This document shows, in pieces, positions 2,687 through 49,649 of a stretch of DNA of 58,666 nt; position 1 is the stretch's first letter; each line of letters starts with the position of its first letter. A program made the translations under genes and the position numbers. The DNA lies in IMG/VR virus record IMGVR_UViG_3300010413_000002, positions 64,001 to 122,666 of that record, one strand, 5' to 3'. The notes under the pieces are model-generated. The model made no database searches, was not told where the DNA came from, and saw only the letters and a list, made by a program, of their open reading frames with translations. This stretch comes from a virus.

Positions 2687-2758
2687 GGTTTCTTCGTCTA
2701 ATGGTTAGGACGTCAGCTTTTCACGTTGGCAATACGGGTTCGAGTCCCGTAGAGACCA
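2687..2758 (+). tRNA. tRNA-Glu (TTC)
   Basis: The 7-bp acceptor stem GGTTTCT/AGAGACC has one G-T pair. The anticodon loop TTTTCAC gives TTC, and the T-arm is CGGGTTCGAGTCCCG. CCA is not encoded. The gene stands alone about 1 kb before the main tRNA cluster. Confidence 0.9.
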
Positions 2759-2785
2759 CAAATAACAAAGGAAAAACTTAAAAAA

Positions 2786-2956
2786 TTAATTAATTAAGCT
2801 AATAAAGCAAAGTGTAGTAAAAAATAAGCCTAAAACTCCGAATATTGTACTAGGATGAATATTTCCTTCGAATTTTTTTCCATTTTTCCAACCGTATATA
2901 AACAGAAATAAAAAGAATAAAAACCAAAATGTACAAAGAATATATTTTACTATCAT
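2786..2956 (-). CDS. Small membrane protein (56 residues)
   Basis: An ATG at 2956 opens a 56-codon frame ending with TAA at 2786. The product has two hydrophobic segments, about residues 4-21 (ILCTFWFLFFLFLFIYGW) and 38-54, separated by a short KNGKKFEGN loop. It is too short for most gene callers. It follows the endonuclease ORF and tRNA-like 3' end on the same strand and may be co-transcribed with them. No family is recognised. Confidence 0.5.
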   Translation of the reverse strand: MIVKYILCTFWFLFFLFLFIYGWKNGKKFEGNIHPSTIFGVLGLFFTTLCFISLIN

Positions 2957-2970
2957 AATTTATTTAAAAA

Positions 2971-2997
2971 GTGAGAGAGACAAGGATTTGCACCTTA
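2971..2997 (-). other. tRNA-Leu-like 3' end (T-arm and acceptor)
   Basis: On the minus strand this reads as a T-arm (TAAGG, loop TGCAAAT, CCTTG) followed by CTCTCTC and AC. That acceptor strand pairs exactly with GAGAGAG at 3459-3453, about 470 nt upstream. One extra T lies between T-arm and acceptor, so it is at best a decayed or atypical tRNA end. Confidence 0.5.
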
Positions 2998-3432
2998 TCT
3001 AACCCAATTAACTTTAAATTCTTCAAAATTATTACTTTTTTTTGTTTTGTTGATATTTCCTTTCGGATAAAAAGTAATACTTCTTCTTCCTAATATTTTT
3101 TCTATAGGAATTAGATATACCGACATAGTCTCTTTCTCTATAGCACATAATAAATCAAAAGATTTATTAGTATATTTTTTATTTATTCTTCTATTGCTTC
3201 CTCTTATATGAGAGGTAACACAACTAATTAAATATCTTTTCTTAGAATTATCAAAATATATAGTTTTAACCTGAACTCTAATTAATTTATTCCATAAATC
3301 ACTTCCGATTACTAAATCATACTCATTAAAGTCATTAATTGGCTTAGATACAACAGACCCTATGCTAACAAAATAAGCCATTGCCAACAACTCACTAACA
3401 GTTCCGTTTCTATGTGTTTTTATATTACTCAT
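2995..3432 (-). CDS. PD-(D/E)XK endonuclease, I-Ssp6803I/PDDEXK_5-like
   Basis: A 145-residue protein from the ATG at 3432. A GTG at 3453 would add seven residues read from a tRNA-like sequence, so it was not chosen. The order G-x-VSE-x-LAMAYFVSIG, then NEYDLVIG, then VQVKTIYF matches the PD-(D/E)XK fold: a helix Glu, the catalytic Asp in YDLV, and the Q-V-K strand. Length and motifs fit the family of group-I-intron endonucleases that includes I-Ssp6803I, which is encoded within a cyanobacterial tRNA gene. Here the ORF lies exactly between tRNA-Leu-like 5' and 3' ends. A homing endonuclease is the favoured role; another PD-(D/E)XK nuclease is possible. Confidence 0.65.
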   Translation of the reverse strand: MSNIKTHRNGTVSELLAMAYFVSIGSVVSKPINDFNEYDLVIGSDLWNKLIRVQVKTIYFDNSKKRYLISCVTSHIRGSNRRINKKYTNKSFDLLCAIEKETMSVYLIPIEKILGRRSITFYPKGNINKTKKSNNFEEFKVNWVR

Positions 3433-3440
3433 ATTTTTTT

Positions 3441-3461
3441 CTAATTCCGCCACTCTCTCAC
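3441..3461 (-). other. tRNA-Leu-like 5' end (acceptor and D-arm start)
   Basis: The minus strand reads GTGAGAGAG then TGGCGGAATTAG. This is the typical start of a bacterial tRNA-Leu: a 7-nt acceptor, T8-G9, then GCGGAATT. The sequence then departs from tRNA and enters the endonuclease ORF nine nt later. GAGAGAG pairs perfectly with the CTCTCTC of the 3' end at 2971-2997. Confidence 0.5.
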
Positions 3462-3586
3462 ATAATAATTTAGGTGGGGAAATAAAAGCGTTTAATTCCT
3501 TTCTTTTTTCTTCTATTTATTATTCTACGTTTATAATAAATTTTCTCTTTTAAATACGTTAAAAGTTTAGAAAGTTTCCCCTTATC

Positions 3587-3610
3587 CCTCAAAACTTAAA
3601 AGTTTTGAGG
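3587..3610. terminator. Strong hairpin in the leader or intergenic region
   Basis: A perfect 10-bp stem CCTCAAAACT/AGTTTTGAGG closes a TAAA loop and is followed on the plus strand by TTTT. It could terminate plus-strand transcription. It could also fold within the long minus-strand leader of the endonuclease gene. A second stem, TGAGATA/TATCTCA, lies at 3627-3644. Confidence 0.5.
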
Positions 3611-3650
3611 TTTTCAAACAACTAAATGAGATAGGTTTATCTCAAGATTT

Positions 3651-3678
3651 ATTATAAAGTATACTTTGTAAATATCAA
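3651..3678 (-). promoter_or_regulatory. Sigma70-like promoter
   Basis: On the minus strand TTGATA (3678-3673), a 16-nt spacer and TATAAT (3656-3651) are seen. The predicted transcript starts just before the 7-bp hairpin at 3627-3644 and has a leader of about 190 nt before the tRNA-like 5' end and endonuclease ORF. Confidence 0.55.
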
Positions 3679-3686
3679 GAAAAATC

Positions 3687-3715
3687 TTGCTTTTTATATA
3701 AAGAAAGATTAATTT
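3687..3715 (+). promoter_or_regulatory. Possible promoter of the tRNA cluster
   Basis: TTGCTT (3687-3692), 17 nt and TAATTT (3710-3715) lie just before the first tRNA of the cluster. An alternative -10 is TATATA at 3715-3720. It is weak, but it is the only candidate close enough. A small CAAGA/TCTTG hairpin overlaps the -35 box. Confidence 0.3.
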
Positions 3716-3726
3716 ATATAATTAAT

Positions 3727-3813
3727 GGGCAAACGCTGCAGTGGGAGAGGCAGGCTTCGCTGTAAACGAAGTACTTTTTAGTTTAGTTGGTTCGAATCCA
3801 TCTTTGCCCACCA
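3727..3813 (+). tRNA. tRNA-Tyr (GTA)
   Basis: Acceptor GGGCAAA/TTTGCCC, anticodon stem CTTCG/CGAAG with loop CTGTAAA (GTA), a long variable arm as in bacterial tRNA-Tyr, and an encoded CCA. First gene of the sixteen-tRNA cluster. Confidence 0.92.
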
Positions 3814-3851
3814 ATTTGACAAATCATAAAATATAATATACAATAAAATCA

Positions 3852-3922
3852 AAGGGCTTGGTTCAAAAGTAGAACGACGGTCTCCAAAACCGTAGACGAG
3901 GGAGCATTACCTTCAGCCTTTG
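3852..3922 (+). tRNA. tRNA-Trp (CCA)
   Basis: Acceptor AAGGGCT/AGCCTTT (one G-T), anticodon stem ACGGT/ACCGT, loop CTCCAAA (CCA). The T-stem GAGGG/CCTTC encloses the atypical loop AGCATTA, which lacks the usual TTC. No 3' CCA is encoded. Confidence 0.78.
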
Positions 3923-3927
3923 CATGT

Positions 3928-4003
3928 GTTAGGCGTAGTTTAATGGTTAAAACAACAGGTTGTGGTTCTGTTAATGTCGGTTCGACTCCGATCGTTTAAC
4001 CCA
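3928..4003 (+). tRNA. tRNA-His (GTG)
   Basis: Acceptor TTAGGCG/CGTTTAA with an extra G at position -1 opposite C73, the identity feature of bacterial tRNA-His. The anticodon loop TTGTGGT gives GTG, the T-arm is GTCGG/CCGAT, and CCA is encoded. Because G-1 is already in the DNA, the phage Thg1-like protein should not be needed to add it. Confidence 0.9.
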
Positions 4004-4008
4004 AATTA

Positions 4009-4089
4009 CCGCCCATGATGGAATGGTAGACATGAGAGACTTAAAATCTCTTGGCTTATGCCGTGCTTGTTCGAGTCAAGCTGGGCGGA
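4009..4089 (+). tRNA. tRNA-Leu (TAA)
   Basis: Acceptor CCGCCCA/TGGGCGG, anticodon stem AGAGA/TCTCT with loop CTTAAAA (TAA), a long variable arm, and T-loop TTCGAGT. No CCA is encoded. Confidence 0.9.
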
Positions 4090-4098
4090 CATAAATTA

Positions 4099-4182
4099 GC
4101 TCCTATGGCGAAACTGGTAAACGCGGTAGATTTAGAATCTATTTTCCTACGGGAAGTAAGAGTTTAAATCTCTTTTGGAGTA
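4099..4182 (+). tRNA. tRNA-Leu (TAG)
   Basis: Class II tRNA starting GCTCCTA-TGGCG. Anticodon loop TTTAGAA gives TAG. T-stem AAGAG/CTCTT with loop TTTAAAT. The acceptor has one mismatch and one G-T pair. No CCA is encoded. Confidence 0.85.
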
Positions 4183-4185
4183 CAT

Positions 4186-4274
4186 GGAAGATTGACCGAG
4201 TTGGTAAGGTAGCGGATTGCTAATCCGTACAACGTTAACGCGTTGCATAGGTTCGAGTCCTATATCTTCCGCCA
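4186..4274 (+). tRNA. tRNA-Ser (GCT)
   Basis: Acceptor GGAAGAT/ATCTTCC, anticodon loop TTGCTAA (GCT), a long variable stem-loop, T-loop TTCGAGT, and an encoded GCCA end. Confidence 0.92.
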
Positions 4275-4276
4275 AC

Positions 4277-4352
4277 GTCTTCGTAACTCAGTGGTTAGAG
4301 TACGTTCCTTTTAAGAACGGAGTCCTTGGTTCAAATCCAAGCGGAGACGCCA
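4277..4352 (+). tRNA. tRNA-Lys (TTT)
   Basis: Acceptor GTCTTCG/CGGAGAC, anticodon stem CGTTC/GAACG with loop CTTTTAA (TTT), T-arm with TTCAAAT, and an encoded CCA. Confidence 0.93.
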
Positions 4353-4353
4353 A

Positions 4354-4429
4354 GTTAACATAGCTCAGTGGATAGAGCAAGTGCCTTCTAAGCACTAGGT
4401 CGGAAGTTCGAATCTTTCTGTTAACGCCA
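4354..4429 (+). tRNA. tRNA-Arg (TCT)
   Basis: Acceptor GTTAACA/TGTTAAC, anticodon stem AGTGC/GCACT with loop CTTCTAA (TCT), T-loop TTCGAAT, and an encoded CCA. It reads AGA, the dominant Arg codon here. Confidence 0.93.
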
Positions 4430-4430
4430 T

Positions 4431-4506
4431 TCTCTTGTAGCTCAATTGGCAGAGCGATTGACTGTTAATCAATAGGTTACTGGTTCGACCCCAGTCAAGA
4501 GAGCCA
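4431..4506 (+). tRNA. tRNA-Asn (GTT)
   Basis: Acceptor TCTCTTG/CAAGAGA, anticodon stem ATTGA/TCAAT with loop CTGTTAA (GTT), and an encoded CCA. Confidence 0.93.
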
Positions 4507-4507
4507 T

Positions 4508-4583
4508 ACACAAATAGCTTAATGGTTAAAGCAACGATATTATACGTCGGAGATTGAAAGTTCAAGTCTTTCTTTGTGTACCA
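4508..4583 (+). tRNA. tRNA-Ile (TAT), reads ATA
   Basis: Acceptor ACACAAA/TTTGTGT, D-stem GCTT/AAGC, T-stem GAAAG/CTTTC, and an encoded CCA. The anticodon loop ATTATAC gives TAT. The anticodon stem ACGAT/GTCGG has three Watson-Crick pairs, one wobble and one mismatch, so the assignment is slightly less certain. Most bacteria read ATA with a lysidine-modified CAT anticodon, so a TAT anticodon is notable. Confidence 0.75.
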
Positions 4584-4588
4584 AAATT

Positions 4589-4676
4589 GGAAAGTAAACT
4601 GATAAGGTATCAGACCTGACTTGAAATCAGAGGGTACGTTTACGCGTATGGGTTTCGATTACTCTGCTTTCCGCCA
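4589..4676 (+). tRNA. tRNA-Ser (TGA)
   Basis: Acceptor GGAAAGT/GCTTTCC, anticodon loop CTTGAAA (TGA), a long variable arm and an encoded CCA. The T-arm uses TTCGATT with a short stem. Confidence 0.88.
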
Positions 4677-4677
4677 A

Positions 4678-4754
4678 GCTGTCTTAGCTCAATTGGCAGT
4701 AGCAACTGACTTGTAATCAGTAGGTTGAGAGTTCAAGCCTCTCAGACAGCACCA
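4678..4754 (+). tRNA. tRNA-Thr (TGT)
   Basis: Acceptor GCTGTCT/AGACAGC, anticodon stem ACTGA/TCAGT with loop CTTGTAA (TGT), and an encoded ACCA end. Confidence 0.93.
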
Positions 4755-4755
4755 C

Positions 4756-4830
4756 GGAACGATAGCTCAACGGTAGAGTGTTCGACTGTCTATCGAATGG
4801 TTGCGGGTTCAAATCCCGTTCGTTCCGCCA
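4756..4830 (+). tRNA. tRNA-Asp (GTC)
   Basis: Acceptor GGAACGA/TCGTTCC, anticodon stem TTCGA/TCGAA with loop CTGTCTA (GTC), and an encoded GCCA end. Confidence 0.93.
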
Positions 4831-4835
4831 TATAT

Positions 4836-4911
4836 ACAGCCTTAGCTCAATTGGTAGAGCGATTCCCTTACAAGGAATTGGTCGTAGGTTCAAATCCTAC
4901 AGGCTGTACCA
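4836..4911 (+). tRNA. tRNA-Val (TAC)
   Basis: Acceptor ACAGCCT/AGGCTGT, anticodon stem ATTCC/GGAAT with loop CTTACAA (TAC), and an encoded ACCA end. Confidence 0.93.
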
Positions 4912-4985
4912 TCGGAGGTCGTCTAATGGTAGGACGTGTTCCTTTGAAGAACAAAATAGAGGTTCGATACCTTTTCTCCGAACCA
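4912..4985 (+). tRNA. tRNA-Gln (TTG)
   Basis: Acceptor TCGGAGG/TCTCCGA, anticodon stem TGTTC/GAACA with loop CTTTGAA (TTG), and an encoded ACCA end. It abuts the flanking tRNAs, so processing of a shared transcript is implied. Confidence 0.92.
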
Positions 4986-5060
4986 GCGAGTGTAGTATAA
5001 TGGCTATTATGCTTGGCTTCCAACCAAGAGACGCGAGTTCGATTCTCGCTACTCGCACCA
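4986..5060 (+). tRNA. tRNA-Gly (TCC)
   Basis: Acceptor GCGAGTG/TACTCGC, anticodon stem CTTGG/CCAAG with loop CTTCCAA (TCC), and an encoded ACCA end. Last gene of the sixteen-tRNA cluster. Confidence 0.93.
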
Positions 5061-5061
5061 T

Positions 5062-5167
5062 ACTTCCCTAAAAAATTGATTATAAATATAATTAAATTAC
5101 TGTTTTAAGCAGGATTATTCGTATTAAGCGAGTGATATTTATTTATTAATTAATTTAGGTATTTATT
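5062..5167 (+). promoter_or_regulatory. Leader with ACTTCCCTAAAA element
   Basis: ACTTCC (5062-5067) followed by CTAAAAAATTGAT and TATAAA lies immediately after the tRNA cluster and about 100 nt before the ATG at 5168. It matches the element before the terL, gpK-like, fibre and protease genes, but here the distance to the start codon is longer. Confidence 0.4.
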
Positions 5168-5500
5168 ATGTATACATTGAAAATAGAATCAGATAATGGT
5201 TTTTGCTATGTTAACCTACCAAAGAAATTTAAATTCAATTTCAATTCCAAGAATTTTTATATAAGTGAACATATGTTAAATTTAAGACCGTATTTAGTAG
5301 ATGTAATAGTTAGAAACCCTAACGAAAACAATTACAAAATAGAAAAAGATAAATCGGAAGAGGGTGTTTTAATTTATGTTTTTCTACAAAAATTTAAAGA
5401 TATTGAATATTTTTCAGAAAATGGCGAAAGATGTAAAATCTTTTTTAATGGAGACGCTTATCTTGTAAAAGAAGGCGGAAGAACAATAGAAAAGTTTTAA
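5168..5500 (+). CDS. Hypothetical protein
   Basis: A 110-residue soluble, mostly beta-predicted protein with no recognisable family. It stands alone on the plus strand between the tRNA cluster and a gene-free region. It is preceded by the ACTTCC leader and followed by two inverted repeats, so it looks like its own transcription unit. Confidence 0.55.
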   Translation: MYTLKIESDNGFCYVNLPKKFKFNFNSKNFYISEHMLNLRPYLVDVIVRNPNENNYKIEKDKSEEGVLIYVFLQKFKDIEYFSENGERCKIFFNGDAYLVKEGGRTIEKF

Positions 5501-5897
5501 TTAAAAATATTAAATGAGATGAAAAAATATATAAAAATTAAATTTCATCTCATATATATTTATATAACGGAAAAACCGTTTTATCCGAATTATGGAAGTT
5601 AATAACTTACTGTAACTCAATGTTATTATAAAGTTATTTTTAAACTAACCTATAATCAAGATATTGTTATTATATTATAAAAAAATTATTTGTCAAGTAT
5701 TTTTTTAAAAAAATATAGATAAGTTCAAAGAAAGCTTGAGGTTAATAATAAAATAACGAAAATAATATTGAACAAAAGAAAGACCTCAAGCTTATTATTA
5801 TCTAATATCATTTAATATTTTAATCTCTCATCTAACTCATCATAAGATATTAGATATTAACATTATTACATTATAATTGATTTTTGGGAAGTCTAAA
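5501..5897. other. Gene-free region with several inverted repeats
   Basis: No ORF of useful length is seen in 397 nt. It holds an 11-bp inverted repeat ATGAGATGAAA/TTTCATCTCAT (5514-5524 with 5543-5553) and a short terminator-like stem AACGG/CCGTT (5576-5590). It also holds a second 11-bp repeat AAGCTTGAGGT/ACCTCAAGCTT (5732-5742 with 5783-5793) with a 40-nt loop. On the minus strand a TTGACA box lies at about 5690 and an ACTTCCC element with TATAAT at 5892-5870, directly after the stop of the next minus gene. Small RNAs or mRNA ends are plausible; nothing proves them. Confidence 0.45.
5576..5590 (+). terminator. Short terminator-like hairpin
   Basis: AACGG-AAAAA-CCGTT is followed by TTA. 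It lies 76 nt after the gene ending at 5500. The stem is only 5 bp, so termination strength is doubtful. It would be equally stable on the minus strand. Confidence 0.4.
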
Positions 5898-6242
5898 TTA
5901 ACTATTCTTATTTTTTAAATAATTTTGATGATATTTAGCAACTTTATCTTTATTGTTGTTTTTCCAATGTTTTAATGACTCTTTATATTTTTTAGTTTTA
6001 AATCTCTTTTTTTGACACTCTATACAATGCGATGTTAATCCTGTTTTATTTTTTTTAGATTTACTTTTATCAAAATAAAAATATTGTCTTGTAGTTGGTT
6101 TAAATCTTTTGCATTTTGGACACTTTTTTTGTTTAGAATTATTTACTTCTAGTCTTGATGAATTTAAAGGTTTTTCATTTAGATAATAATTTTTTTTATT
6201 ATTTTTTTTGATTGCTTCAGATATTTTTTTAAAAATTTTCAT
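5898..6242 (-). CDS. Zinc-finger protein, CxxC...CxxC
   Basis: A 114-residue basic protein. Residues 41-76 contain C41-P-K-C44 and C73-I-E-C76, with the spacing and aromatic/Lys pattern (KPTTRQYFYFDKS, then KTGLTSHC) seen in the zinc-binding part of phage HNH or endonuclease-VII-like proteins. No HNH catalytic motif follows; the remainder is a Lys/Asn-rich tail. It may bind nucleic acid, or be a remnant or partner of a nuclease. A consensus sigma70-like promoter and a hairpin-bearing leader precede it. Confidence 0.6.
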   Translation of the reverse strand: MKIFKKISEAIKKNNKKNYYLNEKPLNSSRLEVNNSKQKKCPKCKRFKPTTRQYFYFDKSKSKKNKTGLTSHCIECQKKRFKTKKYKESLKHWKNNNKDKVAKYHQNYLKNKNS

Positions 6243-6320
6243 AATCTTTTTTTTAATTTCCTAAAAGATTTTTTTAGGGAAAATTTAAACAACTAAATGA
6301 GATATGTTATCTCGAGTTTA

Positions 6321-6348
6321 ATTATATATTATTTATTTTAATTGTCAA
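6321..6348 (-). promoter_or_regulatory. Sigma70-like promoter
   Basis: On the minus strand TTGACA (6348-6343), 16 nt and TATAAT (6326-6321) form a near-perfect promoter. The leader begins with a GAGATA/TATCTC hairpin followed by ATTTAGTTGTTT. The same arrangement is seen downstream of the promoter at 3651-3678. Confidence 0.65.
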
Positions 6349-6370
6349 GTTTTATTTTATATCTATTTTT

Positions 6371-7297
6371 TTAGTTTTTTTTTGATAAACAATCTTTACA
6401 TTGTTTTCTATATCCGTTCTTTTTTGTTACATCCTTTCTAAAATTTTCTAAAGATTGCGGTTTTCCTTTATGAATACAATTTTTATTATGGCAAATTATT
6501 TTTTCTTTAGGAAGAAAAAATTTTAATATTCTTTTTATTTTATTTTTTTTTCGATATTTTTTAATTCTTTTGTTTTTGGAAATTTTTTCACAATCTTTAC
6601 AGCGTGAACGGTATTTTCTTTTTTTTCTACTTGCATCTTTATTGAAATTTCTTAAAAATTGCGGTTTTCCTTTATGAATACAATTTTTATTTGAACATAT
6701 TAATGTTTTATTTGTATTTAATGATTCCGATTTAATTTTTTCTTTTGGAAACAAAAAATAATTTTCGTTTGTTTTTTGTGTTGTGTGTTTAATATTGTTT
6801 TTATTTTTTGAAATCAAATCTTTGTATTTTTCTATAGATAAAATAACCGCAACTTTTTTACCTCTTTTTTTAATTATAATTTTGTCTTTTTTAGAAATAT
6901 ATTTTAAAATAGCTCCAGTATGATTTTTTAAGTCACTTGAATTTGCAATTTTGTTTTTTATTCGATATTGTTTTTTATCTTTTTTTCTTTGTTCTTGTTC
7001 GAATTCTTTTAATCTTTTTCTTAATCTTTCATTACCTTCATCATTATATCCTAAAACTTCGCCTCTTGATTTATATTGTTTTCTATCTTCTCGTTTAATT
7101 TTATGTTGATTTCTAATTGCTTTTAAAATACCATTGTTATCTTTTGTCTATTTTTTTTGATATTTTTTACGACAATCATTGCAATATGTATGGTATTGCC
7201 CTGTTTTTTCATTATAATAAAATTCATCAATATCTTTTTCTTTTCCGCAGGCATTAGAACTTCCTCTTTTACCTCCGCAGATTTTTGTTCCTATCAT
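6371..7297 (-). pseudogene. Zinc-ribbon / Phd-like / tandem zinc-finger ORF interrupted by TAG
   Basis: From the ATG at 7297 the frame runs 49 codons with Cys at 7, 17, 39 and 42, meets TAG at 7150-7148, then stays open in the same frame to 6371 (308 residues if read through). After the stop come a basic region, then a Phd/YefM antitoxin-like stretch (NSSDLKNHTGAILKYI, then KIIIKKRGKKVAVILSIEKY). Two tandem copies of a zinc motif follow (IC.NKNC then CKDC, each with HKGKPQ). The part after the stop has no ATG near its beginning; a TTG at 6817 would give only the zinc repeats. No CTA-anticodon suppressor tRNA is visible. A recent nonsense mutation, readthrough or a sequence error are alternatives. 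Confidence 0.6.
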
Positions 7298-7328
7298 TTT
7301 TAATAAAATAAAATTAATAATTTTCTAT

Positions 7329-7357
7329 AATATAAATATAAAAATTTGAAAAGTCAA
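7329..7357 (-). promoter_or_regulatory. Sigma70-like promoter
   Basis: On the minus strand TTGACT (7357-7352), 17 nt and TATATT (7334-7329) lie about 30 nt before the ATG at 7297 of the amber-interrupted zinc-finger ORF. Confidence 0.5.
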
Positions 7358-7384
7358 GAAAAAGTTAGAAATTATCATTGATTT

Positions 7385-7461
7385 TGGTCTAGGTAGCAGG
7401 ATTTGAACCTGCGACCCCAAGACCCCAAGACTCGTATGCTACCAAACTACACCATACCTAG
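7385..7461 (-). tRNA. tRNA-Pro (TGG)
   Basis: Acceptor CTAGGTA/TACCTAG, anticodon loop CTTGGGG (TGG), T-arm GCAGG-TTCAAAT-CCTGC, and an encoded ACCA end. The anticodon stem has one T-T mismatch next to the loop. The loop region shows a short tandem CTTGGGGT repeat. Confidence 0.85.
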
Positions 7462-7464
7462 ACA

Positions 7465-7535
7465 TTGCGGACTTGGGACTCGAACCCAAAGCTTCGGCGT
7501 ATGAGACCAACGAGTTACCTTTACTCCAATCCGCA
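7465..7535 (-). tRNA. tRNA-Met (CAT), probably elongator
   Basis: Acceptor TGCGGAT/GTCCGCA, anticodon loop CTCATAC (CAT), T-arm TTGGG-TTCGAGT-CCCAA. Position 1 is paired and the anticodon stem lacks the three G-C pairs of initiators, so it is elongator Met. An Ile tRNA with modified CAT is less likely because tRNA-Ile(TAT) is present. No CCA is encoded. Confidence 0.85.
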
Positions 7536-7542
7536 TAAAAAT

Positions 7543-7571
7543 ATTATACAGTTATTTGTGATTTTTGTCAA
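7543..7571 (-). promoter_or_regulatory. Consensus promoter of tRNA-Met/tRNA-Pro
   Basis: On the minus strand TTGACA (7571-7566), 17 nt and TATAAT (7548-7543) lie 8 nt before tRNA-Met. The -35 is part of a palindrome TTGTCAA-GTA-TTGACAA (7565-7581), which could be an operator. Confidence 0.7.
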
Positions 7572-7608
7572 GTATTGACAAATTTTAGATAAGATTTTGA
7601 AAACAATA

Positions 7609-8025
7609 TTAATAAATTATTATAGTATTTAAAAATTTTTCAGCTTCTTTTTGGATTTTTTTATTTGTTTCTAAAATATTTTTATCGCTTTTACTTTTTC
7701 TTTCGTTTTTGATTTTTTGTATATCTTCTTTATTGTTTTTTCTGTATTCTATTCTTTTTTTATAAAGAGCTTTTTCAAAAGCAATACAAAGTAGATTATT
7801 CTCTTCTGCTGATAAATCAAAATTAAATCCATTAAATTTTTCATCTTTTGGATTTTCTATAGACAGTTCTATTTCGTTAGTTATATTTGATAATACAACT
7901 ACAATTTTTTTCTTATCTTTGTCTTCAAAAGAAAATAAAAACCTTGTTCTATTTAAAACTTTTTCTGGTTGATATAATTCAAACTTTTCAGCATTATTTG
8001 CTATTTCTTCTATTTTTTTATTCAT
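7609..8025 (-). CDS. Hypothetical protein, paralogue of the broken gene at 1837-2201
   Basis: A 138-residue protein with an N-terminal IEEIANNAEKF, a beta-rich centre (FLFSFEDKDKKKIVVVLSNI), a LSAEENNLLCIAFEKAL helix and a Lys/Glu coiled-coil tail. The order matches the frameshifted gene at 1837-2201. No family is recognised. It precedes tRNA-Met and tRNA-Pro and follows two other minus-strand genes (8062-9238), probably in one transcript. Confidence 0.55.
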   Translation of the reverse strand: MNKKIEEIANNAEKFELYQPEKVLNRTRFLFSFEDKDKKKIVVVLSNITNEIELSIENPKDEKFNGFNFDLSAEENNLLCIAFEKALYKKRIEYRKNNKEDIQKIKNERKSKSDKNILETNKKIQKEAEKFLNTIIIY

Positions 8026-8061
8026 TTTTATTTGTTTTTATTAAAAAAATATTTTATAAAA

Positions 8062-8349
8062 TTAAAATTTTATATTTTTAAAGTCAAACTTTTTCTTTAT
8101 TTCTGTTTTAAAAATTCTTATTTTTTTATCACTATTTAAAAATTCTTTTTTTATCTTTATAACTTTTTTTGGATCTAAATTTGCGTATTCACAAACTGAT
8201 ATAAAATTATTATTATTTAAATTCATCCATTCGTTTGAGGCTTTTTTGTTTATAATAGAAGCTCTACTTGTAGCAACAGAAGATAAATCTATAAAAGCTT
8301 GTATTATTACATTTAACCAAAAATTTTCTAAAGCTTCACCTTCAGTCAT
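8062..8349 (-). CDS. Small phage protein, paralogue of 15085-15471 and 55565-56044
   Basis: A 95-residue protein. It shares an architecture with two other genes in the window: a helix containing IIQAFIDL (or MIIAQGLIDV), a WM/WF position, then FISVCEYANLDPKKVIKI (or FLLICKLADVDPNYILKL), followed by a basic region. The pattern resembles an uncharacterised small-protein domain common in alphaproteobacterial phages and is possibly a helix-turn-helix. It begins 1 nt after the stop of the nucleotidyltransferase gene, so the two are coupled. Confidence 0.55.
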   Translation of the reverse strand: MTEGEALENFWLNVIIQAFIDLSSVATSRASIINKKASNEWMNLNNNNFISVCEYANLDPKKVIKIKKEFLNSDKKIRIFKTEIKKKFDFKNIKF

Positions 8350-8350: not shown

Positions 8351-9238
8351 TTAATTGTCGTATTTATTTACTAAGTTTTTTAATTCTCTCAATAAATCTT
8401 GGCTTCCATTATTGTTTATAATAGCATTATCAATATTACCATAATAACTCTCTAAGCAATTTAATAAAACTTTTTTAATTTTTTCAATATTTGGTTTTTC
8501 TCTAAGACTACTTTTAACATAAAGACCAGTTAAGTCAAGCTCTTTTTGCTCGAACCACTTTTCTAATCTTTCCAAACTCCAGTCGCCTTTTCTTATTGAT
8601 GATAAAATCTTAACATTGGAATTCAAAGTTAGAGTTCCATACATTAAAATCTCTTCACACTCTAATAAAAGTCTAACTAAATGATAAGCAAATTTTGTAT
8701 CATATCCTAATTTTTGAATACTCTTATTTCTTTTTTCGTTTTGATGTGAAGTTCTATTTTTAATTTTATTGTATTGAGAAAAAGCATAACCTCTAAATTT
8801 CTTCCAACAACCTTTATGTAAAAATAATTCTTTATTTTCTCTTATTATTTCACCGATTTCGTTTGAATAAGTTATACAATTTCTAGGTACAAATAGGCTA
8901 TCAATCATATTCGGATTATTTTCTACGATTAGATTAAAGTATTTAATAATTGAATAGATTGAAATATCGAAAGTTTGCTTTTCGTCTTTTATATGATGTT
9001 TTTGAAAAACTTCAAATTGTTTTACTTTTGTATGAAAATTATAAATATATCCATCCAAATGAGGAAATACTTCTTTTTTAGGAGGTATTGCAACGGCGTA
9101 AATATCCATATCAGAGTTATCTTTTGATACGCCATAAGCCATACTTCCCATTATAACTTCATATATAAGTCCTTCCTTGATATTATTTGATAATATCAAT
9201 AGATTTTTTTCTGCTAATTTTTTTATATAACTTGTCAT
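8351..9238 (-). CDS. Nucleotidyltransferase, RlaP (DNA polymerase beta superfamily) type
   Basis: A 295-residue protein. Residues about 31-50 carry the polymerase-beta-type nucleotidyltransferase signature GSMAYG...NSDMDIYAV: Gly-Ser, then Asp-x-Asp for metal and NTP binding. The following IPPKKEVFPHLDGYI and the helical rest fit the RlaP-like family (PF10127), which occurs in phages and has been linked by genome context to RNA repair. The substrate is unknown; transfer of a nucleotide to an RNA or small-molecule end is plausible. A promoter with TTGATT-17-TATAAT precedes it, divergent from the methyltransferase operon. Confidence 0.7.
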   Translation of the reverse strand: MTSYIKKLAEKNLLILSNNIKEGLIYEVIMGSMAYGVSKDNSDMDIYAVAIPPKKEVFPHLDGYIYNFHTKVKQFEVFQKHHIKDEKQTFDISIYSIIKYFNLIVENNPNMIDSLFVPRNCITYSNEIGEIIRENKELFLHKGCWKKFRGYAFSQYNKIKNRTSHQNEKRNKSIQKLGYDTKFAYHLVRLLLECEEILMYGTLTLNSNVKILSSIRKGDWSLERLEKWFEQKELDLTGLYVKSSLREKPNIEKIKKVLLNCLESYYGNIDNAIINNNGSQDLLRELKNLVNKYDN

Positions 9239-14147: not shown

Positions 14148-14723
14148 TTATTCTATTTCATTTAAAAATTTATCCGCTAATTTCCAATCTATAATTTTTT
14201 GTCCTCTGATATATAATTGATCGTCATTGATAACTTTTTCTAAATTTGGAATATTTGCATATTTTTTATAAATATTTTTTACAAAATCAAAATGTGCTTT
14301 TGAATGTTCAACGCTTCTATCTAATTCAGTATTGTTTTTTACTTCTGCTAAATAAGTGCTTCCAAGATGACAAAGATGCTCGGCATACTCAGAAATATAT
14401 CGATGTCCAACAGTTCCGCTACAAGCTAACATTGAACCACAAGAGTAAGCATAAGAAGATACCCTAGTTTCTATTATAATATCATTTTGTTTACAATATT
14501 CTACTCTTGAGAGTAAATCCATTAAATATCTTGCGTAACCACCATTTGAGTTTATGTCAAAAATTATTTTTCCTTTCTTTTTCTTTTTTTCTTTTTCAAT
14601 TAAAGAATCCAAATTTTGTATAATTCTTTCAGAAACGCTTTCATCAAAAACTCCATGTAAGTAGATTTTGTTATCAACAATATAATTTAAAATTTTATCT
14701 TCTTCTATTCTTCTTCTTTCCAT
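14148..14723 (-). CDS. ClpP-like serine protease
   Basis: A 191-residue protein, the size of bacterial ClpP. It has the ClpP core FDINSNGG (oxyanion loop), VSSYAYSCGSMLACSG (nucleophile Ser region), CHLGST (catalytic His region) and a C-terminal IRGQKIIDWKLAD like the ClpP handle end. Phages use such proteases in prohead maturation or to process host proteins. Since a separate S78-type prohead protease lies at 34591-35724, this one may instead act on host or regulatory proteins. The family is clear; the role is open. Confidence 0.75.
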   Translation of the reverse strand: MERRRIEEDKILNYIVDNKIYLHGVFDESVSERIIQNLDSLIEKEKKKKKGKIIFDINSNGGYARYLMDLLSRVEYCKQNDIIIETRVSSYAYSCGSMLACSGTVGHRYISEYAEHLCHLGSTYLAEVKNNTELDRSVEHSKAHFDFVKNIYKKYANIPNLEKVINDDQLYIRGQKIIDWKLADKFLNEIE

Positions 14724-14738
14724 TTTTATTATTTGTTG

Positions 14739-14812
14739 TGGAAGTGATGGGAATTGAACCCATAACCTTTTGCTTGCAAGGCAAATGCTCTAGCCAATTG
14801 AGCTACACCCCC
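14739..14812 (-). tRNA. tRNA-Ala (TGC)
   Basis: Acceptor GGGGGTG/CACTTCC with two G-T pairs, anticodon stem TTTGC/GCAAA with loop CTTGCAA (TGC), T-loop TTCAATT. CCA is not encoded (ACAA). It lies between the HU-like and ClpP-like genes on the same strand and is probably excised from their mRNA. Confidence 0.9.
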
Positions 14813-45265: not shown

Positions 45266-45290
45266 ACTTTTATTAAAAAAATTAAAACAA

Positions 45291-45548
45291 ATGAAATATA
45301 AAAAAGTTTCAGAAAAAAAATTTAAAGAATTTATAAAAAATAATTCTTTAACTAAATTTGTAGAAAAAAATAGAGTTGACAAATTAAGCTTAATTTTTTT
45401 TAAAGATTCTTCTGAGGAAATTATAGCCAAATACTATAAAGATCCAGAAAAAAAAGAAACTTTTGGATTTTCAATAAAAAAGGATTATAATGAAAATATT
45501 AAACCAACTAAAAGTATTGGCAACAAAATATCTAAAAGAAAAAAATAA
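45291..45548 (+). CDS. Hypothetical protein before yqeY
   Basis: An 85-residue basic protein (KKVSEKKFKEFIKNN, then FFKDSSEEIIAKYYKDP). It is not assigned to a family. It is the first gene after the promoter at 45236 and overlaps the yqeY start by 59 nt in another frame, so translation is probably coupled. Its place suggests a link to tRNA metabolism, but nothing in the sequence shows it. Confidence 0.5.
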   Translation: MKYKKVSEKKFKEFIKNNSLTKFVEKNRVDKLSLIFFKDSSEEIIAKYYKDPEKKETFGFSIKKDYNENIKPTKSIGNKISKRKK

Positions 45549-45915
45549 AGAATATCTAATAGCAACAAGAAATATAATAAACGCACTTCAAAATAAACAA
45601 AAAGACAAAAAAAACAACCTAACTGAACAAGAAGAAATTCAAGTTTTGAAAAATCTAAGAAAAAAATCATTAGAATCAATAGAAGCCTACAAAAAAGGAA
45701 ATCGTCAAGATTTAGTTAAACTAGAAAAGATTGATTTAAAAATCATAGAACAATTTTTACCAAAAGAATTATCCGAAGAAAAAACTAAAGAGATTATTGA
45801 AAAAGTAATTCAAAAATTAAATACTAAAGATATAGGTTTAATTATGAAAGAGTTAAAACAGTATAAAAATATTAATATGGGTCTTGCTTCTAAAATAATT
45901 AGAACCTTAATATAA
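45490..45915 (+). CDS. yqeY: GatB/YqeY-domain protein
   Basis: A 141-residue protein, the size of bacterial YqeY. The pattern EYLIATRNIINALQNKQ, LTEQEEIQVLKNLRKKSLES, AYKKGNRQDLVKLEKIDLKI, EQFLPKELSEEKTKEIIEKV and a final MGLASKIIRTLI follows the YqeY family along its whole length. The domain is also the tRNA-binding tail of GatB in the Glu/Asp-tRNA amidotransferase. The free protein's role is not settled. Its stop codon is the first base pair region of the tRNA-Cys gene. A phage copy beside tRNA genes is unusual. Confidence 0.85.
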   Translation: MKILNQLKVLATKYLKEKNKEYLIATRNIINALQNKQKDKKNNLTEQEEIQVLKNLRKKSLESIEAYKKGNRQDLVKLEKIDLKIIEQFLPKELSEEKTKEIIEKVIQKLNTKDIGLIMKELKQYKNINMGLASKIIRTLI

Positions 45916-45985
45916 ACTAGGTGGCAGAAGGGTTATGCAACGGTCTGCAAAACTGTTTATGCGAGTTCAAATCTCGTCCTAGTTT
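45915..45985 (+). tRNA. tRNA-Cys (GCA)
   Basis: Acceptor AACTAGG/CCTAGTT, anticodon stem ACGGT/ACTGT with loop CTGCAAA (GCA), T-loop TTCAAAT. Discriminator base is T, as in tRNA-Cys. Its first base is the last base of the yqeY stop codon. No CCA is encoded. Confidence 0.9.
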
Positions 45986-45999
45986 CAAACCAAAATAAA

Positions 46000-46782
46000 A
46001 TGAATGGAAAAAATATTAAATATTATGAATTGATTCAAAATAATGAAGTTATAATTCCTAATTTACCTTTATATATTAGAATTGATGGAAGAAGTTTCCA
46101 TGTATTTACAAAAGGTTTCCAAAAGCCATTTGATTTAGATTTTATGAAAATAATGCAAAAAACTACTTCAGAATTAATTAAGGAAACAAAAGCTTGTATT
46201 GGTTATACTCAATCTGATGAAATAAGTTTAGCTTTTTATCCTAAAGACAATAATGAAATTTTTTTATTTGGAGGAAGAAAATTTAAATTAATCTCAGTCT
46301 TTTCTTCTCTTGCTACAAGTATTTTTATAAAAGAATGTTTAAAATCTAAAAATAAATTAATAAAAGAAAGAACTAAAAAAATTAATGTTTCTTTTGATTG
46401 TAGAATATATCAACTTCCAAATATACAAGAATTATTTAATGTATTTAAATGGAGAGAAGATGACGCAGTAAAAAATTCAATTAATATGCTTGCTCAAAGC
46501 CTATATAAACACAAAGAACTTCAAAACAAAAATCAAACAGAGCTTCAAGATATGATCTACGATAAAGGTTTAAATTGGAACAATTGCATTCCTGATTTTA
46601 AAAGAGGAACTTTTTTTGTTAAAGTCTTTAAAAAAAGAAAAGTTAAAAAAGAATATTTAAACAAATTTAAAATTAAAAATAAATTTTATTTTAGAGCAAA
46701 AATTGAAAAATTAAATTTAGAAGAAAATAACGGTATAACCATTGAAAAATTCAATGAATTTTATAAAAATCTTGATTATTAA
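46000..46782 (+). CDS. thg1: Thg1-like protein (tRNA 3'-5' polymerase family)
   Basis: A 260-residue protein. LYIRIDGRSFHVFTKGFQKP (Asp29 metal ligand), IGYTQSDEISLAFY (Asp73-Glu74) and GRKFKLISVFSSLATSIF are the conserved core of tRNA-His guanylyltransferase/Thg1-like proteins. These add nucleotides in the 3'-5' direction to tRNA 5' ends. Bacterial and phage members are mostly repair enzymes. The phage tRNA-His already encodes G-1, which favours repair of truncated tRNA 5' ends over G-1 addition. It sits between tRNA-Cys and tRNA-Phe. Confidence 0.88.
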   Translation: MNGKNIKYYELIQNNEVIIPNLPLYIRIDGRSFHVFTKGFQKPFDLDFMKIMQKTTSELIKETKACIGYTQSDEISLAFYPKDNNEIFLFGGRKFKLISVFSSLATSIFIKECLKSKNKLIKERTKKINVSFDCRIYQLPNIQELFNVFKWREDDAVKNSINMLAQSLYKHKELQNKNQTELQDMIYDKGLNWNNCIPDFKRGTFFVKVFKKRKVKKEYLNKFKIKNKFYFRAKIEKLNLEENNGITIEKFNEFYKNLDY

Positions 46783-46808
46783 TTTTTTTAAATTAATATA
46801 AAATTATT

Positions 46809-46884
<76 letters not shown>

Positions 46885-46899
46885 CATTATAGGAGAAAA

Positions 46900-47145
46900 A
46901 TGTTTAGAATTTTTTTTAGAAAAAGATTTGTTTGTGGGCATATAGCTTATTTTGGTGCAGACGAAAAAAGCGAAAGTTTTAAAATTTGGAATACAAGTTT
47001 TAATTTTGCAGAAGACGCAAAAAAATGGTTTAAATTTTATATGTATAAACCTGTTATTTTATATGATAGAAAAACAAAATGCTTAATAAAGACAAGAAAT
47101 CTTATCAGCATTTATTTTAATGAAATAAAGGAGGAAAATGACTAA
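46900..47145 (+). CDS. Hypothetical protein
   Basis: An 81-residue protein. The ATG at 46900 is chosen because AGGAG lies 6 nt upstream; the longer frame from 46852 runs through tRNA-Phe. It contains GHIAYFGADEKSESFKIWNT and FAEDAKKWFKFYMYKPVILY. The beta/alpha mix suggests a small folded domain of no known family. A strong AAGGAGG for the next gene is in its last codons. Confidence 0.55.
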   Translation: MFRIFFRKRFVCGHIAYFGADEKSESFKIWNTSFNFAEDAKKWFKFYMYKPVILYDRKTKCLIKTRNLISIYFNEIKEEND

Positions 47146-47863
47146 AAAAACAGAATTAGATCCATTGGAATATTTCCAAGATTTAAAAACTAAAAAAAGA
47201 AAATGGAATACTGAAAAATTAAAATTATTATTAAATAACACTGAAAAACTTCTAACAAAAGCTTATAAATTAAATCAAGAAGAAGTTTGTAGAAAGTTAT
47301 TGTTTAATTTAGATGTAATACAAAAAGAAAAAAAAGTTTTTGATTTAGGAATAGATACTTTTATATATTCTGAAGACATCTTAGAATATATAAATGATAT
47401 TTCTAATAAAGAAGTAAAAATAATAGAATTAAAGAAATTTCCTAGAGAGATTCCTGACAATATTTCTAATAAAATTTTAGAATTAAAAGAAAAAAAAATC
47501 TTTGATGACTTTCTTATAGTTTTTACAGATTATACTGGAGAAGTAGAAAAACAAGTAGAAAAAGAAAGAAGAAGAAAAGACCCAATAATATTTGGAATTT
47601 TTACTAAAGATAAAAACTTTTGCAATAGATGTTATTTCATAGCTGACTGGGAAGATGAATATTGCGATTTGACTTTAGAAAGAATGATTGGAGAAATGGC
47701 TGAAGAAGGTATTAACATAAAACACTCCGTCGAACAAAACATCGAACTAGACGACATTAGAAGCTATATCAATTCTTTAGATGAAAAGAATAAGGTTTTA
47801 ATGAATCGTATTAGTAGAAAACCATCGTTTTTTGAAAAGGTTAGATTATGGTTAAAAAAATAA
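47138..47863 (+). CDS. Hypothetical phage protein
   Basis: A 241-residue acidic protein with an N-terminal helical part (LKLLLNNTEKLLTKAYKLNQ) and a central alpha/beta region (FDDFLIVFTDYTGEVEKQVE, DPIIFGIFTKDKNFCNRCYF, ADWEDEYCDLTLERMIGEMA). The centre resembles small uncharacterised phage proteins with a D-W-x-D-x-Y-C-D-L-T-L motif. No catalytic motif is certain. The ribosome-binding site AAGGAGG is among the best in the window, implying strong translation. Confidence 0.55.
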   Translation: MTKKTELDPLEYFQDLKTKKRKWNTEKLKLLLNNTEKLLTKAYKLNQEEVCRKLLFNLDVIQKEKKVFDLGIDTFIYSEDILEYINDISNKEVKIIELKKFPREIPDNISNKILELKEKKIFDDFLIVFTDYTGEVEKQVEKERRRKDPIIFGIFTKDKNFCNRCYFIADWEDEYCDLTLERMIGEMAEEGINIKHSVEQNIELDDIRSYINSLDEKNKVLMNRISRKPSFFEKVRLWLKK

Positions 47864-48219: not shown

Positions 48220-48455
48220 ATCATTCCCAAGGCATCTTTATAGGTTTCAAGTAATTGTTCTATTTCAATTCTTTGGTCTTGATCCATTTTTCTTAAATTA
48301 ACAATTTTTTTAATTATTTTAGTATTAAAACCTAAAGCTTTAGCTTCTTTATAAATCCCACTTATTTCATCAACAAGCTCTTTTCTTTTTTCCTCTAAAG
48401 CTTCAATATTTTCTACTATTTTTTTTAATTTCAAATCAATATTGTTTTCTATCAT
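48216..48455 (-). CDS. gapR: GapR/DUF2312 family DNA-binding protein
   Basis: A 79-residue protein matching the GapR (UPF0335/DUF2312) family from end to end: LKKIVENIEALEEKRKELVD, EISGIYKEAKALGFNTKII, KIVNLRKMD and a final LETYKDALGMI. GapR is a small tetrameric protein of Alphaproteobacteria that binds overtwisted AT-rich DNA. A phage copy may organise phage DNA or compete with host GapR. It is the best host indicator in the window. A ribosome-binding site (AAAGGA) and a promoter at 48484-48511 precede it. Confidence 0.9.
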   Translation of the reverse strand: MIENNIDLKLKKIVENIEALEEKRKELVDEISGIYKEAKALGFNTKIIKKIVNLRKMDQDQRIEIEQLLETYKDALGMI

Positions 48456-48483
48456 ATTTCCTTTTTTATTATTAATAATAATA

Positions 48484-48511
48484 TTTATATTTTATTTTTT
48501 CTTTTTGTCAA
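48484..48511 (-). promoter_or_regulatory. Sigma70-like promoter of the gapR-like gene
   Basis: On the minus strand TTGACA (48511-48506), 16 nt and TATAAA (48489-48484) lie 28 nt before the gapR-like start, at the 3' end of the upstream membrane-protein gene. Confidence 0.5.
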
Positions 48512-48725
48512 TAAAATTAAGATTATATTTTTTGTTATTTAATTCTATTATACATTTTCTTTTTATAAAATTATATTCTTTAATATTTGTTTTAAAAAAT
48601 TTAGCTTTTTTATAGCAATTTGCATAATCATTGTTATACAAAACCCCAAAAATTATTAAAAAAATTATTGAATATACGAAAATACTAGCGAATATATTAA
48701 CACTATTGTCTTTTTTATATATCAT
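48492..48725 (-). CDS. Small membrane protein
   Basis: About 77 residues from the ATG at 48725, which lies in the last codons of the upstream gene (ATGATATAA overlap); the frame open from 48776 has weaker support. One strong hydrophobic segment (ASIFVYSIIFLIIFGVLY) near residues 11-28 is followed by a Lys/Asn-rich soluble part with two Cys. No family is recognised. It is coupled to the gene at 48715-48993. Confidence 0.5.
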   Translation of the reverse strand: MIYKKDNSVNIFASIFVYSIIFLIIFGVLYNNDYANCYKKAKFFKTNIKEYNFIKRKCIIELNNKKYNLNFIDKKKK

Positions 48726-48993
48726 TTTTATCTGTTTTGTATTTAATATTTTTAACATGTATTTCAACATCGGCACTTAAAAAATCATTTTCTTCAGCTC
48801 CGATTACTTTAGATTTTAATAATAAAGAATTTTTCTTTTTCTTTTTGCACATATTAATAGCCAAACCACAAGATAAAGTTAAAATACTTTCTGATTTTTC
48901 AAAATCCTTATCTTCAAAAAAATCTCTAAATTTTCTAAAATTATCTATAATTAATGTATTTTTTTCATATTCTTCTTTTAATAATTTTTTCAT
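48715..48993 (-). CDS. Hypothetical protein
   Basis: A 92-residue protein with a helical N-terminus (LLKEEYEKNTLIIDNFRKF), a central LTLSCGLAINMCKKKKK and a beta-like C-terminus (SADVEIHVKNIKY). No family is recognised. It lies 15 nt after the endolysin gene and overlaps the next membrane-protein gene, so all three are probably co-transcribed and could be lysis-related. Confidence 0.45.
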   Translation of the reverse strand: MKKLLKEEYEKNTLIIDNFRKFRDFFEDKDFEKSESILTLSCGLAINMCKKKKKNSLLLKSKVIGAEENDFLSADVEIHVKNIKYKTDKNDI

Positions 48994-49008
48994 TTTTTTA
49001 TTATGTTA

Positions 49009-49458
49009 TTAATCAATTTGAAAGTGTCCTCCGTCTTCTATATTTGAAAACCAACCACCCCATTTAATATTTAATCCAGTTTCATAACCAAAACGTAGTA
49101 TAATCCCAGCAATATGATGATAATATTTTATGTTCCAAGTTATTTTTCCATTTAACAATACCACAATATCTACTGCTTTACCTTTTCCTTCTTTATCAAA
49201 CTCTTGATGTTTAGATTTCTTGTTATAACCATCTTTACTTGTTACAACTTTCTTTTTATTTACTATAATCCATTTACCATCTTTAAGCTTTCTTCCTTTT
49301 TTATAAAGTTCAAATTGTTCTTCTGCTGTTCTTATTACATAAAAAACCTTTAATCTTAAAGGAGAATTTATATTAATTAAAAACTGATTTGTGTTTTCTA
49401 TGCAAAATGCTAAATTATTATTTAGATTTTTTAATAGTCTTTTGCTTCTTTTGTCCAT
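49009..49458 (-). CDS. Endolysin, M15 peptidase (L-Ala-D-Glu type)
   Basis: A 149-residue protein. VFYVIRTAEEQFELYKKGR (the R..EQ..LY..GR start of M15), SKHQEFDKEGKGKAVDIVVL (His and Asp zinc ligands) and WGGWFSNIEDGGHFQID (His ligand) are complete. Such enzymes cut the peptide of peptidoglycan between L-Ala and D-Glu. There is no signal peptide, so release depends on a holin. It is on the strand opposite to the spanins and about 4 kb away, an unusual split of lysis genes. Confidence 0.85.
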   Translation of the reverse strand: MDKRSKRLLKNLNNNLAFCIENTNQFLININSPLRLKVFYVIRTAEEQFELYKKGRKLKDGKWIIVNKKKVVTSKDGYNKKSKHQEFDKEGKGKAVDIVVLLNGKITWNIKYYHHIAGIILRFGYETGLNIKWGGWFSNIEDGGHFQID

Positions 49459-49572
49459 TCTCTTCTTCTAGTTTTTTCATTAAATCGATATTTTCTTCAT
49501 TAATTGTATATTTAATTCCTAGTTTTTCTAAAAAATCTATAAACTTTTTTACTCTTTCCTTTGTTTTTCTCT

Positions 49573-49649
49573 TGGTGCGGTTTCTGCGACTTGAACGCAG
49601 GACATACGCCGTATCAGAGCGTTGCTCTAACCAACTGAGCTAAAACCGC
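49573..49649 (-). tRNA. tRNA-Ile (GAT)
   Basis: Acceptor GCGGTTT/AAACCGC, anticodon stem ACGCT/GGCGT with loop CTGATAC (GAT), T-arm CTGCG-TTCAAGT-CGCAG, and an encoded ACCA end. With tRNA-Ile(TAT) the phage reads all three Ile codons. Confidence 0.92.

What the first reader, a model, noticed from the sequence alone, without database searches (positions are those of the whole stretch)
2687..49649. Intact tRNA genes for all 20 amino acids in one phage window
Twenty-three foldable tRNAs were read by hand: Glu, Tyr, Trp, His, Leu x2, Ser x2, Lys, Arg, Asn, Ile x2, Thr, Asp, Val, Gln, Gly, Pro, Met, Ala, Cys and Phe. Together they cover every amino acid. Sixteen are tandem at 3727-5060; the rest are spread singly or in pairs between protein genes on both strands. 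A full set is rare and suggests independence from the host tRNA pool, for instance under host tRNA cleavage.
Basis: partly seen in the sequence, partly recalled or inferred. Interest (0 to 1): 0.8.

Follow-up and report, generated by a model that had tools for sequence, protein, structure and literature searches.

The report
Phage with complete, repairable tRNA set
A 122,500-base virus of bacteria carries its own tRNAs for all 20 amino acids and, elsewhere in its genome, enzymes predicted to mend broken tRNAs, so it could probably keep making protein if its host destroyed tRNAs in defence; similar sets are known from a few larger phages.

Summary
Searches recover all 23 tRNA genes at the stated places, covering all 20 amino acids with no anticodon used twice. 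Three are weak: Tyr (41.5 bits), Trp (49.3 bits, abnormal T-loop) and Ser-UGA (30.6 bits). Completeness rests on tRNA-Trp alone. If U34 reads four-codon boxes, the set decodes 57 of 61 codons and 99.5% of the phage's codons; only CGN-Arg is missing. There is no initiator tRNA, and no synthetase was seen.

The window is part of a complete 122.5-kb myovirus that also encodes Hen1, a three-domain Pnkp, an Rnl2-type ligase, RlaP, a Thg1-like protein, a CCA-adding enzyme and YqeY. So "independence from a cleaved host tRNA pool" gains direct genomic support: probably replacement plus repair of tRNAs cut by host defence nucleases. No function was tested and the host is unknown.

"Rare" needs qualifying. 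Full sets are published, and large tRNA sets were common in 14 random viral contigs of at least 80 kb, though none covered 20 amino acids. Phage XacN1 already shows the whole package. This is a new, smaller member of a known kind.

The parts
2687..2759 (+). tRNA-Glu(UUC), no encoded CCA
   Evidence: ARAGORN; Rfam 59.9 bits; promoter-like TTGATA-18-TATAAT at 2638-2667
3727..5060 (+). 16-gene tRNA array: Tyr, Trp, His, Leu(UAA), Leu(UAG), Ser(GCU), Lys, Arg(UCU), Asn, Ile(UAU), Ser(UGA), Thr, Asp, Val, Gln, Gly
   Evidence: promoter-like sites at 3693-3722 and 3816-3844
3852..3922 (+). tRNA-Trp(CCA) with abnormal T-loop AGCAUUA and no GG in the D-loop; the only Trp tRNA
   Evidence: Rfam 49.3 bits; cloverleaf is the minimum-energy fold; not found by ARAGORN; sequence not found in other IMG/VR contigs
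4589..4675 (+). tRNA-Ser(UGA), weakest of the 23
   Evidence: Rfam 30.6 bits, tRNA-Sec model 37.8 bits; T-loop TTCGATT and encoded GCCA read directly; not found by ARAGORN
7385..7535 (-). tRNA-Met (not initiator-like) and tRNA-Pro(UGG) pair
   Evidence: perfect TTGACA-17-TATAAT at 7571-7543, 8 nt upstream
8351..9238 (-). RlaP, RNA-repair nucleotidyltransferase (GS...YG...SDMD motif)
   Evidence: Pfam PF10127 5e-22; PHROG_388; translation
14738..14812 (-). tRNA-Ala(UGC), no encoded CCA
   Evidence: (74.7 bits)
45490..45915 (+). YqeY (GatB-tail-like domain) protein, directly before tRNA-Cys
   Evidence: Pfam PF09424 3e-23
45915..45986 (+). tRNA-Cys(GCA), no encoded CCA
46000..46782 (+). Thg1-like 3'-5' RNA polymerase (tRNA 5'-end repair family), between tRNA-Cys and tRNA-Phe
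   Evidence: Pfam PF04446 2.8e-31; PHROG_4717 9.5e-69; PDB 4kgk Thg1-like protein E=1e-28 with IDG and SDE motifs kept
46809..46884 (+). tRNA-Phe(GAA)
   Evidence: 70.1 bits
49573..49649 (-). tRNA-Ile(GAU)
   Evidence: 67.4 bits
53963..55189 (-). Hen1: N-terminal ligase-activating domain plus 2'-O-methyltransferase with the EVIEH and RHNDH motifs
   Evidence: Pfam PF22032 2.2e-43; PDB 4xrp_C Hen1 1.3e-28; alignment with four phage Hen1

Best explanation
The phage probably carries a nearly self-sufficient and repairable elongator tRNA pool as protection against host nucleases that cut tRNAs during infection. The 23 tRNAs give about one tRNA per codon box and would replace any host tRNA that is destroyed. 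Cut tRNAs would be mended: Pnkp cleans the ends (5'-kinase, 3'-phosphatase) and, activated by the N-domain of Hen1, seals them, while Hen1 2'-O-methylates the break so that it cannot be cut the same way again. Rnl2 with RlaP would mend other breaks, Thg1 would restore 5' ends, and the CCA enzyme would restore 3' ends and mature the seven tRNAs without an encoded CCA. Shown here: the genes, their intact motifs and the decoding coverage. Inferred: expression, charging, enzyme activity, complex formation and the defensive purpose.
For: Complete non-redundant set, 57/61 codons and 99.5% of codon tokens if U34 reads four-codon boxes. Trp and Met, which have no synonymous codons, are included. Completeness far above chance in simple draw models. 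Six repair enzymes in one 122.5-kb genome: Hen1, three-domain Pnkp with its ligase motifs, Rnl2, RlaP, Thg1, CCA enzyme. Promoter-like sites lie 4-20 nt upstream of Glu, Tyr, Trp and Met tRNAs. Pnkp-Hen1 chemistry and immunity to re-cleavage: PMC4411300. Phage tRNAs and RNA repair as counters to tRNA-cleaving defence: PMC7824862, PMC10264068, PMC11555353 (abstract).
Against: Nothing was tested in a cell. The host and its nucleases are unknown. No initiator tRNA, no CGN-Arg tRNA, no synthetase found. tRNA-Trp is structurally abnormal. Hen1-bearing phages do not carry clearly more tRNAs than random large viral contigs: 10 of 18 with 18 or more, against 5 of 14. G017 has all six repair families with only 2 tRNAs, so the repair kit and full set are separable.
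Confidence: 0.65

Rival explanations
1. Codon compensation: the tRNAs top up host isoacceptors that are scarce relative to the phage's AT-rich codon use; the repair genes are a separate trait.
For: 27% GC and strong A/T-ending codon use, e.g. AUA 4.9% and AGA 2.8%, with matching Ile(UAU) and Arg(UCU) tRNAs. XacN1's authors found such a trend (PMC5852040).
Against: Trp and Met have no synonymous codons, and low-use His and Cys tRNAs are present. Compensation predicts a partial, biased set, whereas 23 genes cover all 20 amino acids without repeats.
Confidence: 0.2
2. Broad host range or host shut-off: the phage degrades or outlives host tRNA itself and needs a portable decoding set in varied hosts; repair serves host RNA damage of any origin.
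For: The set is generic, one per box, and XacN1's authors tie its translation genes to a wide host range (PMC5852040).
Against: No host range is known for this phage. It does not explain Hen1, whose methyl mark protects against repeat cleavage at the same site (PMC4411300).
Confidence: 0.12
3. Mostly passive accumulation of mobile tRNA genes, some already decaying (Trp, the degenerate copy outside the window).
For: Abnormal Trp T-loop and weak Ser-UGA; degenerate tRNA-like gene at genome 49964-50032; large tRNA sets are common in random large viral contigs.
Against: Twenty amino acids from 23 genes with no repeats is not what random accumulation gives: 0 of 200,000 draws, and controls with 44-57 tRNAs still miss at least one amino acid. 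21 of 23 have a canonical TTCRA T-loop.
Confidence: 0.06

Closest known systems
Xanthomonas jumbo phage XacN1 (AP018399; PMC5852040)
   Same: tRNAs for all 20 amino acids plus two Thg1, a CCA enzyme, glutamyl-tRNA amidotransferase, Pnkp and Hen1 (paper); RlaP and RNA ligase families also hit here
   Different: 384,670 bp and 56 tRNAs against 122.5 kb and 23 distinct anticodons; kinase, Hen1 and ligase are separate adjacent genes in XacN1, whereas here Pnkp is one three-domain protein far from hen1; Hen1 only about 26% identical
Stenotrophomonas phage RAS14 and its relative CM1
   Same: RAS14: all 20 amino acids by ARAGORN, Hen1, Pnkp-type ligase, Thg1, RlaP, RNA ligase
   Different: 320 kb; no CCA enzyme hit; includes suppressor-type tRNAs
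Mycobacteriophage Momo / cluster C1 (PMC4472892) and the viral tRNA clusters surveyed in PMC6409571
   Same: Published full sets of isotypes, also in phages that are not jumbo
   Different: More tRNAs (35 in Momo); their repair genes were not examined here
Bacterial Pnkp1-Rnl-Hen1 complex of Capnocytophaga gingivalis (PDB 4xrp/4xru; PMC4411300)
   Same: Hen1 and the ligase part of Pnkp match by sequence with motifs kept
   Different: There Pnkp1 and ligase are separate proteins; here kinase, phosphatase and ligase are fused as in the Pnkp-Hen1 type, and the genes are unlinked in a virus
T4 Pnkp/Rnl repair of PrrC-cleaved tRNA-Lys (as cited in PMC10264068)
   Same: Phage answer to an anticodon nuclease by end-healing and ligation; Rnl2-type ligase present
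   Different: T4 lacks Hen1, so repaired tRNA stays cleavable, and T4 encodes few tRNAs (both own knowledge)

Membership tests
[quoted passage not shown]
   depends on the abnormal tRNA-Trp
Phage with a complete tRNA isotype set (XacN1/Momo kind) | tRNAs expressed and charged | not testable with these tools
   only promoter-like sites
Pnkp-Hen1 RNA repair system | Pnkp with kinase, phosphatase and ligase domains and their motifs | tested here: met
   Pfam AAA_33, Metallophos, PNKP_ligase; motifs GPTSCGKS, DIHG, GD-DKG, GNHE, KYMG, DGE, EGCVIKP in the translation
Pnkp-Hen1 RNA repair system | Hen1 with ligase-activating N-domain and metal-binding methyltransferase residues | tested here: met
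   PF22032; SEVIEH and RHNDH motifs aligned with 4xrp_C and phage Hen1
Pnkp-Hen1 RNA repair system | pnkp and hen1 adjacent | tested here: not met
   genes lie at genome 28399-30966 (+) and 117963-119189 (-); adjacency is seen in the other phages read but is a usual arrangement, not needed for the chemistry
Pnkp-Hen1 RNA repair system | Repair and 2'-O-methylation activity | not testable with these tools
   needs purified proteins
Thg1/TLP family | Thg1 catalytic domain with metal-binding motifs | tested here: met
   PF04446, 4kgk match
Jumbo phage with RNA-repair arsenal (PMC7824862) | Genome over about 200 kb | tested here: not met
   122,522-bp unit from the 144-bp exact terminal repeat

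The most novel reading that the evidence does not exclude
The phage has assembled a near-minimal, one-tRNA-per-box elongator decoding set together with a full break-repair and re-cleavage-proofing pathway, so that translation elongation runs on a virus-owned tRNA pool that is actively maintained (replaced, resealed, 2'-O-methylated, end-repaired) while the host destroys its own tRNAs.
Probability: 0.3. Interest if true: 0.7.

Novelty: new member of a known kind. Interest (0 to 1): 0.45.

Why it matters
Why phages carry tRNAs is long debated (codon compensation versus evasion of tRNA-cutting defences). A phage with one tRNA for almost every box plus Hen1-Pnkp, Rnl2, RlaP, Thg1 and CCA enzymes is a strong genomic case for replacement plus repair, in a genome a third the size of XacN1. 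Whether a phage tRNA set is kept complete to outlast host tRNA destruction becomes directly testable.

Tried and rejected
(1) Hen1-Pnkp as a marker of tRNA-rich phages: not supported; 10/18 Hen1 records have 18 or more tRNAs against 5/14 random contigs of at least 80 kb. All 20 amino acids: 3/18 against 0/14, too few to separate. (2) Close relatives via sheath, terminase or Pnkp as single queries: none in IMG/VR; the terminase is under 30% identical to the best-listed GenBank phages. (3) Host: not found. Best bacterial Hen1 matches are Bacillota at about 34%, but the Hen1 tree puts this phage on a long, poorly placed branch. SD motifs are enriched (AGGAG 15% against 1%); the Bacteroidota-type promoter pattern had 14 hits but no background test, so it says nothing either way. 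(4) Recoding: the standard code gives 89% coding density, with TAA, TGA and TAG all used as stops. (5) Sec tRNA reading of 4589-4672: under Rfam's cut-off (37.8 against 47), the anticodon is UGA; rejected. (6) Rfam plastid hits on the minus strand: below cut-off and antisense to tRNAs; ignored. (8) One search aligned unrelated proteins by mistake and is not used.
Full report
WHAT IS THERE. The window is bases 64001-122666 of a 122,666-base virus record. The first and last 144 bases are identical, so the genome looks complete, with a unit of 122,522 bp that is circular or circularly permuted. It is 27% GC in the window, uses the standard code, and is a myovirus by its terminase, portal, sheath, baseplate and major head protein.

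tRNAs. ARAGORN gives 21 genes; the Rfam tRNA model gives Trp (49.3 bits) and Ser-UGA (30.6 bits). ARAGORN's 21 all have U33 and all but Leu-UAG a TTCRA T-loop; reading, Ser-UGA also has one (TTCGATT), so 21 of 23 do. Trp has AGCAUUA and no GG in the D-loop, though the cloverleaf is its minimum-energy fold. Since it is the only Trp gene, the all-20 claim depends on it. Sixteen genes encode CCA; Glu, both Leu, Met, Ala, Cys and Trp do not. tRNA-His carries an encoded G at -1 and C73. The Met tRNA lacks the C1-A72 mismatch and the three G-C anticodon pairs of initiators (sequence reading against textbook features), so initiation still needs the host.

Decoding. No anticodon is repeated. If U34 reads all four codons of a family box, 57 of 61 codons and 99.5% of 34,637 codons are covered; under strict wobble it is 43 codons and 86%. 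The uncovered box, CGN-Arg, makes up 0.46% of codons. Completeness with so few genes is unlikely by random acquisition: 0 of 200,000 draws from the tRNA pool of eight control contigs, 1e-5 under uniform draws, 4e-5 even if repeats are forbidden. These models assume independent draws.

Repair genes. Pfam, PHROGs and PDB searches show, in the same genome: Hen1 at window 53963-55189; Pnkp at genome 28399-30966 with kinase, metallophosphatase and Pnkp-ligase domains; an Rnl2-type RNA ligase at genome 1218-2189; a CCA-adding enzyme at genome 6668-7990; RlaP at window 8351-9238; a Thg1-like protein at window 46000-46782; and YqeY at window 45490-45915. Catalytic motifs were read in the translations and alignments. 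Thg1 lies between tRNA-Cys and tRNA-Phe with YqeY just before; RlaP lies 0.8-1.7 kb upstream of tRNA-Met/Pro on the same strand; on the circular map Hen1, Rnl2 and the CCA gene share one strand within about 12.5 kb. Of six promoter-like sites scoring 11 or 12 of 12 in window 2400-8200, three lie 8-20 nt before Glu, Trp and Met tRNAs; a 10-of-12 site lies about 5 nt before Tyr. No synthetase appeared among the ORFs of 300 aa or more, each scanned with PHROGs or Pfam.

HOW IT PROBABLY WORKS. Pnkp-Hen1 systems heal both ends of a cut RNA, methylate the 2'-OH at the break and reseal it, leaving RNA that resists the same nuclease; the N-domain of Hen1 switches on the Pnkp ligase (PMC4411300). RlaP, CCA and Thg1 enzymes are held to restore lost nucleotides at breaks and ends, and phage tRNAs to replace cut host tRNAs (PMC7824862). 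The simplest joint reading is a replacement-plus-repair defence of the elongator tRNA pool. It explains why Trp and Met are included, which codon compensation does not, and why Hen1 is present. Gene content is shown; everything from expression onward is inferred.

HOW UNUSUAL IS IT. Hen1 occurs in 5 of 50,697 GenBank phage records (XacN1, RAS14, CM1, sm033, RYC) and was found in 18 IMG/VR contigs with motif patterns; 22 of 23 Hen1-linked records searched also carry a Pnkp-type ligase. Among those searched, all six repair families were hit in this phage, in XacN1 and in G017 (Hen1 in G017 from the 139-residue match); G017 has only 2 tRNAs. A control of 14 viral contigs of at least 80 kb picked by an arbitrary 15-mer had 0-61 tRNAs, median 13, with 5 of 14 at 18 or more; of the eight with 13 or more, whose main tRNA regions were read, none had all 20 amino acids, the best being 19 with 44 and 57 genes. 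In the same control Hen1 was in 0/14, RlaP 2/14, Thg1 1/14, and the RNA ligase family was over its cut-off in 3/14. Big tRNA sets are therefore common; a complete, non-redundant one is not, and the combination with the full repair kit is rarer. It is nevertheless published for XacN1 (PMC5852040), and full tRNA sets alone for several phages (PMC6409571, PMC4472892). I file this as a new member of a known kind, notable for its size, economy and fused but unlinked Pnkp.

LIMITS. No tRNAscan-SE. Host unknown. The control is small and its contigs may be fragments. Family searches by pattern miss distant members. The Hen1 tree does not resolve where the phage got its gene.

Noticed in passing
L011:9964-10032 (genome 49964-50032, outside the window): Degenerate tRNA-like gene (33 bits) without CCA, whose most stable fold has a 5-nt anticodon loop, preceded about 11 nt upstream by a perfect TTGACA-17-TATAAT; relic or decoy, unknown.
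   Followed up: partly
window 10231-12660: 809-aa protein whose DNA-methyltransferase matches at both ends flank matches to helicase/reductase-labelled and unnamed PHROGs; architecture not resolved.
   Followed up: no
window 14148-14723: ClpP-like protease directly downstream of tRNA-Ala on the same strand.
   Followed up: no
window 47138-47863: Putative transposase (PHROG_10081, 3e-67) just after tRNA-Phe, with no Pfam match; could bear on tRNA gene movement.
   Followed up: no
window 39600-43928: 1442-aa protein without any PHROG or Pfam match at the end of the structural gene block.
   Followed up: no
L146-L157 (contigs G005, G006, G007, G008, G009, G011): A group of related Hen1-Pnkp phages with near one-per-box tRNA sets (16-18 amino acids by ARAGORN), all lacking tRNA-His; most also carry a CUA-anticodon tRNA.
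   Followed up: partly
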